A stretch of DNA of 64,000 bases, taken from Prosapia bicincta. Lineage: Eukaryota; Arthropoda; Insecta; Hemiptera; Cercopidae. The DNA is taken from NCBI GenBank assembly GCA_036971475.1, contig JBAIZL010000002.1, positions 167,626,214 through 167,690,213 of the forward strand, in the 5' to 3' direction. The notes beneath the pieces were generated by a model. It had not been told where the DNA came from, ran no database searches, and was given only the letters and a program-made list of their open reading frames with translations. Position numbers and translations under genes: made by a program. Below are positions 25,701-28,700 of the stretch, piece after piece (positions within the stretch are counted from its first letter, which is position 1; every line of letters begins with the position of its first letter).

Positions 25701-28700
25701 AACTGTGCAAATGCCACTAAGTAAAGTCGTCCCTGCCCTTGCTACGGGCCATTATTATTTAAGTGATCCAGAGCGCTACAAGTAGCCAGATGATCAACAG
25801 CATTAACATTATCTGGACTGGAACAACAGGGGTAGGAGTCGTGAAAGAAAATTCCATGTAGGTGGCTCTGGAGGTAGTCATTACCGTTTACGGTCCGAAA
25901 GGTAGACCACGATGTCTCTTGGCAGGACAGTGGAAATGCGTTTGATTTTACCATCTGTTTCAACATTTTGATTACTGCTACGCAGTTAGTCTTTAACATT
26001 TGGCTAATGGTTCGTTTATAGTACTGCACGAGGCAGGATAATTTTAGATGGAATCCTTATGGAAGGTCGTAATCTGATCTATGATTTTATACATCTATTT
26101 TTTTTTATTGTAATCCTTGTAAATATGTATTCATTATGATCATATATTTATTTTGATTATTCCGCCCAAAAACCCTATTAGCAGCGTGGAAAACATTTAT
26201 TTTAATATTAATAAGTTTTTTGAAAAAAATATGTATAACAACTCGATACACATATATCATAATATACTATATTTATTTAAAAAATATAACAGCTAGACAA
26301 ACGAATAGTGTAATATATAAATATAAATAAATATATATATATATATATATATATATATATATATATATATATATATATATATATATTATTGTTAGGATAT
26401 AAAAAACAATTTTTGTAAGCTAACCTTAAATTTTTAAAAACTGAAAGTAAATTCAATGTGACTACAGTCAACAGAGTATTAGAGAAACCGACCACGTAGC
26501 TATTTATGTATTTATCCAATACATACTTACATATATATATATATATATATATATATATATATATATATATATATATATATATATATATGAGTGTGTGTGT
26601 GTGTGTGTGTGTGGTGTTTCTTGTAATATTGATTGCATCGAAATTATGTACTGTTTTATAATCATAATATATGTGTATGGAGTGAAGATGTATTTATAAA
26701 AAATAAACGATTTTTAACAATATATAAATTCAATAAATACTTAAATCAACATTCATTCAAATAAATCGCAATCAATGACTCACTGAAATTGACTCTTTTC
26801 CAGCACCGAGATTCGTAGCAGGATCAAGTTTACTCCAACCCTCCAGGAACTCTTTGACATATCGCTTGGATGATTCCACAATTCTGAAGCCAGTGATGTT
26901 TATTGCGCCGTATTCTATCACTTCAGTTTCCCACCTGTCATCCATAATCTGAAAGTTAAATCAGAACCTGCCGAGAAGTTTTGATAGAATAACTTAAACT
27001 CGTATCCGACACATCATCAACAAGTTGAAGACGTTTTCCAAAGTACGCAAAATGTTGTAAGTTTACGATAACTTAATAAGACACAATTAGATAATATATT
27101 ATCTGCAATATTATAAGTTTATTTTACATACAATAATTTGTTTCTAATATTTGTATGTGTTAATGAAAATTGTTAAACCAGTGAATCTATAAAATACAAA
27201 TCTCTTTTAAATATATGATAATCAAACAGTTTTGTGACATATGAAATGTATGTATACATACATACATATATATATATATATATATATATATATATATATA
27301 TACAACGTTTATTATTACATCAATCCAAAATCTAAATTTTGCTTTGTCCATGCGTAATTGCTGACGCAGGTGTAAGTAATCAGTCAATTTTAAATTGTTC
27401 TCTAATAAATGTGAATCTCATTGTACTTTAGAGTAGTACCTTTGTGTATATTTTATTCTGTCATTTTGTTGGACTGTATATAAACAATTGTGTGTGAAGT
27501 AAACGAGTGTCGTATATTCTATTAACCACAATAAATTGAAGGTTTCTATTTCTTTTCTAAATCATTTAAGTAATATGTAAATCAAATTATAATTAATCAT
27601 ATCCAATGATCGTCTGTTGACAGATTAGTTTACATCTTAGAAAATGTGAGAAATAAAATTACAATAAAAATATTGAAAAGGAACCCCAATACCACAAAAA
27701 TAATCAAAAATAACAAATAACACAAGTTACTTAAGATTAAACCCTTATGTACATTTCGATGACCATGTCATCATCATCAGAGGGTCTAGTTACAAAACAC
27801 AATCTAGCACACAAGAAGTTACAAACTAGAATGATATCATTCTAGTTTGTAACTTCTTGTGTGCTAGATTGTGTTTTGTAACTAGACCCTCTGATGATGA
27901 TGACATGGTCATCGAAATGTACATAAGGGTTTAATCTTAAGTAACTTGTGTTATTTGTTATTTTTGATTATTTTTGTGGTATTGGGGTTCCTTTTCAATA
28001 TTTTTATTGTAATATATTGTACCACTGTGCTCTTGATATTGTGAGAAATAAAAGTTTATTGTAAATAGGAATATTGCCCATTAAACAAATTTAATTTATT
28101 TATAAATAACCAATATATTTGTGTATAAACTAGTAATGACTTAAGTAAGCTAAAATTATATTAAGTTAATTATAGTTTTAAAAAACCTTCTGTATATTTG
28201 AATAAATTGGTTTTATTTATAGGTACACAACAGCATAAAAATTGTTATTTAGCTACAGAAATGATCAATTAATTATGCTAACACTACCGTGTAATAAATA
28301 ATTATCAACGGAAGTTATCAAATCAGGTAATGAAAAGTTACCATTTTGTTTGATATTTTTACCTAATTACAATTTTGTTTCTAATTTACTTGTTTTTTTT
28401 ATAATGTATGACAAAATGAACGTAAAGTATTCAATGAAGTTAATAAATGAAGAAATATATGTTTTTGTTACATTGAAATACTTTCATTCAGCTGATAATA
28501 ACTAAGGTTTAGAATTCGCTTTAATTCCGTCAATGAGTTGAAATTATTTTAAGCTATTGTAAAGGGAACGCAATTAATTCACTTTGTCGAGTGAACAGAG
28601 CGTAAGCGGCTCATGTAGGATTAGATGTCCGGCACGAGGTTATTGCTTTAGAACAAGGGCCAATTGTTGTAATTGCAGCTCCATCGTAATGCTGATTGTT

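What the first reader, a model, noticed from the sequence alone, without database searches (positions are those of the whole stretch)
27645..28053. Spacer-free 356-bp perfect palindrome with a 14-bp target-site duplication
The two 178-bp arms are exact reverse complements with no loop, flanked by TGTGAGAAATAAAA on both sides, with 26 extra bases only on the right. Perfect spacer-free palindromes of this size are unstable, so this should be a young insertion. Its arms carry the same boxed motif as the PLE termini, so it may be a coding-free insertion of two head-to-head PLE terminal repeats, possibly a distinct non-autonomous class. An assembly fold-back artefact is argued against by the asymmetric tail and the target-site duplication.
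Basis: partly seen in the sequence, partly recalled or inferred. Interest (0 to 1): 0.75.

Follow-up and report, generated by a model that had tools for sequence, protein, structure and literature searches.

The report
Coding-free inverted pair of Penelope retrotransposon ends
A perfect 356-base mirror-image insertion in what looks like an insect genome is best explained as two copies of the tip of a Penelope-type jumping gene, written into both edges of one cut and joined head to head, which illustrates how this poorly understood class of jumping gene inserts itself.

Summary
Each arm holds a minimal hammerhead-ribozyme-like fold; seven such folds lie in the window, none in 200 random windows. 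The arms match the ends of a degraded Penelope-like element (PLE) at 20.26-21.90 kb. The window holds nine other head-to-head pairs of PLE ends, one only probable. In the seven pairs that can be called by eye, exactly one arm has the extra tail. In two (B, G) the tail-less arm also reaches further 5', which copying back along one cDNA does not readily explain. A purified PLE protein cuts and extends both strands from two start sites that bracket the tail (PMC11167929). Best reading: two-sided target-primed reverse transcription with the cDNA ends joined head to head. The structural class was published in 2013 (PMC3846280); this is a coding-free, spacer-free, undecayed example. No genome-wide test was possible: the own-genome search did not complete.

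The parts
27645..27658 (+). Left copy of 14-bp target-site duplication TGTGAGAAATAAAA
27658..27835 (-). Left arm: inverted PLE end without tail (reads 5' to 3' on the - strand)
   Evidence: 178/178 identical to the right arm
27746..27780 (-). Minimal type I hammerhead-like core of left arm (stem II 6 bp, loopless palindromic stem III ATGTACAT, stem I 8 bp)
27836..28013 (+). Right arm: PLE end in sense orientation
27891..27925 (+). Minimal hammerhead-like core of right arm; predicted cut after 27925
   Evidence: core; cut site inferred from the hammerhead consensus
28014..28039 (+). 26-base tail, present on the right arm only; PLE origin inferred from position, no second copy found in the window
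   Evidence: similarity to PLE B tail not significant
28040..28053 (+). Right copy of target-site duplication
20252..21914 (-). Comparison locus B: degraded PLE with GIY-YIG-like ORF (20557-21207 -), inverted ends 20302-20598 / 21508-21804 (gapped alignment 20258 / 21872), 12-bp duplication TTACTTTGTATG (20252-20263, 21903-21914), 36-base tail (21867-21902, by eye) on the right arm only
29375..29703 (.). Comparison locus G: head-to-head PLE ends; left arm carries the hammerhead region, right arm lacks it but has the tail
36477..36725 (.). Comparison locus E: old head-to-head pair, 82% identical; tail state undetermined
37016..37262 (.). Comparison locus F: probable, strongly decayed head-to-head pair; tail on the right arm resembles the tail of B
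   Evidence: tail similarity to B: 2 of 5000 random stretches reach it
37634..37879 (.). Comparison locus C37: head-to-head pair, 14-base spacer, tail on right arm only
41414..44577 (.). Comparison locus H: PLE with RT/EN-like ORF remnants and inverted ends 41414-41678 / 43805-44067; left arm stops at (TA)n, right arm runs on into ORF start
52867..53243 (.). Comparison locus D2: old head-to-head pair, tail on right arm only
53244..53658 (.). Comparison locus D: head-to-head pair, tail on left arm only
61595..61799 (.). Comparison locus C61: head-to-head pair, 94% complementary, tail on left arm only (tail lies just outside these arms)

Best explanation
The palindrome is a 5'-truncated, coding-free insertion of a Penelope-like element (PLE) made by two-sided target-primed reverse transcription. 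The PLE protein cut both strands of an AT-rich site with a 14-bp stagger. Each 3' end primed a cDNA on PLE RNA: one from the distal start site (giving the right arm with its 26-base tail) and one from the proximal start site (giving the tail-less left arm). Both cDNAs passed through the hammerhead and stopped or were trimmed about 55 bases beyond it, and their 3' ends were joined head to head, plausibly through the self-complementary sequence now at the centre. Gap filling left the 14-bp duplication. Shown here: anatomy, PLE homology, hammerhead-like folds, recurrence, and tail on one arm only. Shown by others: both-strand cutting and extension, and two start sites that bracket the tail. Inferred: that this happened at this locus, and how the cDNA ends were joined.
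For: Exact arms, 14-bp duplication, tail on one side. Arm-to-PLE homology and a GIY-YIG-like ORF in that PLE (just under Pfam's cut-off), whose named protein matches are insect proteins, several named or domain-typed as RT or GIY-YIG (best 54%, Clastoptera arizonana; also Aromia moschata, Daktulosphaira, Armigeres). Seven hammerhead-like folds against 0 in 200 first-order Markov windows. Ten head-to-head pairs in 64 kb counting this one, F only probable. Exactly one arm tailed in 7 of the 7 pairs where it can be called from the alignments by eye (A, B, C37, C61, D, D2, G); E, F and H are outside this count. B and G: the tail-less arm extends further 5' (B by about 909 bases into coding sequence, G by the hammerhead segment) while the other arm has the tail, so each arm holds bases that the other lacks. 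PMC11167929 (parts 1-2 of 4 and passages): a purified PLE protein cleaves and extends both strands at AT-rich sites and starts at two sites that bracket the 30-40 bp tail.
Against: No second copy of this family's tail was found in the window and its similarity to B's tail is not significant (2644 of 5000 random stretches score as high), so in A the tail's PLE origin is inferred. The arms of A reach the same 5' point, so A alone fits self-priming as well. Tail calls were made by reading alignments; automatic alignments ran into flanking (TA)n. D and D2 may not be independent: both lie in one larger inverted repeat with tails facing. E is undetermined and F decayed. No Rfam hammerhead model matches, all seven folds have one extra base before stem II, and the arm's RNA fold is not unusually stable (z -0.94). 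The PLE experiment, in the parts read, did not report joined two-sided products.
Confidence: 0.68

Rival explanations
1. Self-priming: one template folds back on itself at the element's 5' side and is copied into its own mirror image. Arkhipova and colleagues proposed this for Penelope, on an antisense template, because palindromes stand at inverted junctions.
For: PMC3846280 argues it from the same kind of structures; the centre of A is perfectly self-complementary and both arms start at the same base.
Against: A copied-back cDNA should carry the tail on both arms, but 7 of 7 callable pairs have it on one. In B and G the tail-less arm is longer at the 5' side and the tailed arm longer at the 3' side, which one folded cDNA cannot give without extra steps. 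An antisense-RNA template that loses its tail in processing is not excluded.
Confidence: 0.2
2. Two separate PLE insertions, or a later inversion or recombination, happened to place two ends head to head.
For: D and D2 lie in one larger inverted repeat, so secondary events may occur in this window.
Against: One 14-bp duplication flanks both arms of A and one 12-bp duplication flanks B; a zero-base spacer with 178/178 identity is not expected from two events, and the arrangement recurs about ten times.
Confidence: 0.05
3. Assembly or library fold-back artefact.
For: Perfect spacer-free palindromes are what fold-back chimeras look like (general knowledge); reads were not available.
Against: A fold-back would mirror the tail and the right flank too. 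The left arm stops at the duplication instead. Older, decayed versions with the same plan stand nearby.
Confidence: 0.03
4. A fold-back or MITE-type DNA transposon with long terminal inverted repeats.
For: Long inverted repeats plus a target-site duplication could be annotated this way by default.
Against: The tail lies outside one inverted repeat, so the element's two ends are not symmetrical; the arms match PLE ends and hold hammerhead-like folds. Duplications of 12-14 bp are longer than I recall for such transposons.
Confidence: 0.02

Closest known systems
Endonuclease-containing Penelope elements with inverted pLTRs (Adineta vaga, PMC3846280; passages, outline and Discussion seen)
   Same: Head-to-head inverted pLTRs, optional 31-bp tail on one of them, 8-10 bp duplications, palindromes at the inverted junction
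   Different: The inverted pairs described in the passages seen keep an ORF or captured sequence between the ends, and solo pLTRs are mentioned; here the two arms meet with nothing between
Anole PLE protein PAc in vitro (PMC11167929; parts 1-2 of 4 and passages seen)
   Same: AT-rich target, both strands cut and extended, two start sites that bracket the tail, hammerhead in the template
   Different: Extended strands in vitro; no joined palindrome reported in the parts seen
Metazoan non-LTR retrozymes (PMC7229834, PMC7761336; passages seen)
   Same: Short, coding-free, AT-rich repeats with type I hammerheads, proposed to be mobilised by PLEs
   Different: Retrozymes are direct tandem repeats of about 300 bp; this is an inverted pair with the minimal loopless hammerhead layout
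Human LINE-1 twin-priming inversions (recalled)
   Same: Inverted retrotransposon insertion made by a second priming event at the same target
   Different: Twin priming inverts a non-overlapping 5' part; here the arms are two copies of the same 3' part

Membership tests
Penelope-like element insertion | pLTR or end sequence homologous to a GIY-YIG/RT PLE | tested here: met
   54 bp at 80-81% to both ends of PLE B; its ORF matches GIY-YIG at E 2.4e-4, 21.8 bits against cut-off 22.6, so just below the gathering score; insect proteins at up to 55%
Penelope-like element insertion | Minimal type I hammerhead in the terminal repeat | tested here: met
   Both arms fit the descriptor, 0 hits in 200 random windows; but no Rfam match and one extra base before stem II; cleavage untested
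Penelope-like element insertion | Short target-site duplication | tested here: met
   14 of 14 bases
Penelope-like element insertion | Optional tail on one inverted pLTR, element-derived | tested here: inconclusive
   Tail on one arm; derivation from a PLE not shown for A, supported by repeat copies for B/F and C
Penelope-like element insertion | RT and GIY-YIG coding sequence | tested here: not met
   No room between or beside the arms inside the duplication; so not a complete PLE, only an insertion of PLE ends
Metazoan retrozyme | Direct tandem repeats with hammerheads in the same orientation | tested here: not met
   Arms are inverted; no direct second unit in the window
Metazoan retrozyme | Circular RNA intermediate | not testable with these tools
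   Needs RNA
Fold-back / MITE DNA transposon | Terminal inverted repeats forming both outer ends | tested here: not met
   26 bases lie outside the right arm only

The most novel reading that the evidence does not exclude
PLE integration is built on a two-ended reaction: a dimeric PLE complex extends both edges of the cut, one edge always from the distal and the other from the proximal start site, so that every inverted insertion has exactly one tail. Coding-free palindromes are the normal product when both cDNAs are short, they make up much of this genome's PLE debris, and they have been overlooked or filed as fold-back DNA transposons. Transcribed inside introns they would also form long hairpins able to feed small-RNA silencing of the parent PLE.
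Probability: 0.25. Interest if true: 0.65.

Novelty: new member of a known kind. Interest (0 to 1): 0.42.

Why it matters
How PLEs complete insertion is open: the 2024 in-vitro paper leaves the later steps 'yet to be validated experimentally'. Inverted pairs in which each arm has sequence the other lacks, with the tail on one side only, are a genomic record that can separate two-sided priming from self-priming, and the count is easy to make in any PLE-rich genome. It also warns annotators that palindromic short elements with duplications may be PLE ends rather than DNA transposons.

Tried and rejected
Rfam: no family reaches its threshold in the window. At E up to 10 the best matches to the palindrome are microRNA-precursor models, as expected of a perfect hairpin; with one arm and tail alone only four weak matches, none a hammerhead, remain. 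Tail of A compared with tails of B and F: not significant, so I dropped the claim that they are homologous. RNA fold of the arm: not more stable than shuffles. Two pattern scans of viral contigs: no match and three matches in contigs whose sequence around the site shows no head-to-head pair by eye (of L003 I read 301 bases); the scripted repeat check printed nothing for L001 and then failed, so L002 and L003 were not checked by script. A further CGAAAAGCTT site at 10466-10477 passes neither descriptor; it may be a decayed single PLE end and was not counted. Four other inverted pairs in the self-comparison, at 17059-17207, 22424-22526, 35114-35232 and 35199-35248, showed no hammerhead-like fold and were not counted; they were not studied otherwise. 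Literature searches for coding-free or palindromic PLE pairs gave PMC3846280 as the nearest; the library lacks many subscription papers, and two papers on PLE hammerheads were not held, so absence from print is not claimed. One script misplaced the core in the two B arms and in C37 left, and found none in either E arm; for these I relied on the sequences instead.

Full report
What is there. The window is AT-rich animal DNA. Minus-strand exons of an ionotropic glutamate receptor lie at about 15.93-16.40, 22.04-22.14, 23.73-23.95 and 38.05-38.20 kb; the first matches Pfam and homologs, the other three are read from translations alone, so the palindrome probably lies in an intron. The named matches of the nearby PLE protein piece are insect proteins (many of the 27 matches have no name), which suggests an insect host; the species was not determined. 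The palindrome is exactly as described: 178-base arms, no spacer, 14-bp duplication, 26-base tail on the right only. The next-longest perfect palindrome has arms of 33 bases, a TA run.

What the arms are. Each arm holds CTGATGA-T-[6-bp stem, 3-base loop]-GAA-ATGTACAT-A closed by an 8-bp stem I, a type I hammerhead layout with a loopless, palindromic stem III. A descriptor scan found seven such folds in the window: both arms here, one in PLE B and four in family C; 200 first-order Markov windows gave none. All seven have one extra base before stem II. Published PLE hammerheads are described as minimal, lacking helix III or the usual tertiary contacts, and possibly acting as dimers (PMC6155905 and PMC7761336, passages); palindromic stem III is noted for other hammerheads (PMC3088659, a figure caption). 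A relaxed scan, with any bases at core positions 3 and 8 and no minimum for stem I, gave 11 folds: the same seven plus one each at D, D2, G and H; positions 3 and 8 are U and A in D, G and H and A and A in D2. The same scan gave 9 folds in 150 random windows, none of them C-G or U-A. U3/A8 covariation is reported in natural hammerheads (PMC3088659, section read). Catalysis is not shown here, and Rfam's models do not match. The arm's bases 40-93 match both ends of PLE B, whose ORF has a GIY-YIG match just under Pfam's cut-off.

It is one of a set. Self-comparison and local alignments show ten head-to-head pairs of PLE ends in 64 kb: A (this one), B, C37, C61, D, D2, E, F, G and H; F is only probable. 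In eight of the ten the gap between arms is at most 138 bases; in B and H coding remnants lie between. Single ends of family C stand at about 22.96 and 55.96 kb. Arm identity, as aligned, is 100% in A and 74-90% in the other eight pairs that call covers; those figures include gaps and flanking repeats, and the ungapped arms give 95% for B, 94% for C61 and D and 88% for C37. A is the least decayed. Many C, D, G and H ends abut (TA)n runs, judged by eye, in keeping with the AT-rich target preference reported for PLEs.

The tail rule. In A, B, C37, C61, D, D2 and G the two arms run in parallel to a common end; then one goes straight into target DNA and the other continues roughly 24-40 bases first (read by eye). 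That is one tail in 7 of 7 callable pairs, of ten. Of the other three, F probably follows, H has one arm that stops and one that runs on for about 500 bases, and E cannot be called. If each arm had a tail with probability one half, 7 of 7 would have chance 1/128, or 1/64 if D and D2 count once. The tails look element-derived in family C (same tail in C61 left, C37 right and the single C22; the single C56 has none) and in B/F (2 of 5000 random stretches as similar). For A this could not be shown.

Mechanism. PMC11167929 (parts 1-2 of 4 and passages) reports that a purified anole PLE protein cuts and extends both strands and starts cDNA synthesis at two adjacent internal sites, and that the genomic tail is the sequence between them. 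Two-sided priming, one edge from each start site, gives inverted arms of which one has a tail, within a duplication set by the stagger. PMC3846280 instead inferred self-priming on an antisense template from palindromic junctions. B and G separate the two in part: in B the tail-less left arm runs about 909 bases further, into what reads as RT residues RYFPKVWVRYVDD (by eye), while the right arm has the 36-base tail; in G the left arm has the hammerhead segment, similar to that of D, and the right arm lacks it but has the tail. Neither arm can be a plain copy-back of the other. A itself does not discriminate. How the cDNA ends were joined is inferred: in C37 the centre is GGCC, which also occurs at the matching place in the single copy C22, as expected if self-complementary ends annealed; this is one case.

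Function. As a palindrome the copy is probably dead as a template: in its transcript each hammerhead would be paired with its antisense arm (inference). A hairpin of 178 bp in an intron could feed small-RNA silencing; no data here.

Verdict. Confirmed and explained as a probably young, coding-free member of a published structural class, with the window as a whole giving modest new support for two-sided priming. The genome-wide count that would settle the matter could not be run: the search of the window's own genome was sent 18 times without an answer (listed under Tried and rejected).

Noticed in passing
41.41-44.58 kb: A larger degraded PLE (H) with RT- and endonuclease-like ORF pieces on the minus strand (read by eye), inverted ends and a right arm that runs from a hammerhead-like site into a second ORF start. 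It overlaps the strongly skewed 40-44 kb stretch (GC skew about +0.35, AT skew about -0.36); another PLE-like fragment lies at about 40.0-41.35 kb.
   Followed up: partly
53526 +, 29557 -, 41511 -: Hammerhead-like folds in which the conserved C3-G8 core pair is replaced by U3-A8, in PLE loci D, G and H; such covariation is known in nature (PMC3088659).
   Followed up: partly
52867-53658: Two head-to-head PLE pairs (D2 and D) form one larger inverted repeat (820 alignment columns) with their tails facing across a (TA)n run; origin unexplained.
   Followed up: partly
15.93-38.20 kb, minus strand: Exons of an ionotropic glutamate receptor gene; the palindrome probably lies in its intron.
   Followed up: partly
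48218-49062: Tandem array of a 38-base unit, about 22 copies, 70% matches, in a locally GC-richer stretch.
   Followed up: no
22424-22526: Imperfect palindrome (80%) with no hammerhead-like fold in the scans, possibly a small fold-back element.
   Followed up: no
10466-10520, minus strand: A CGAAAAGCTT site with a CTGATGA about 40 bases upstream; perhaps a decayed single PLE end.
   Followed up: no
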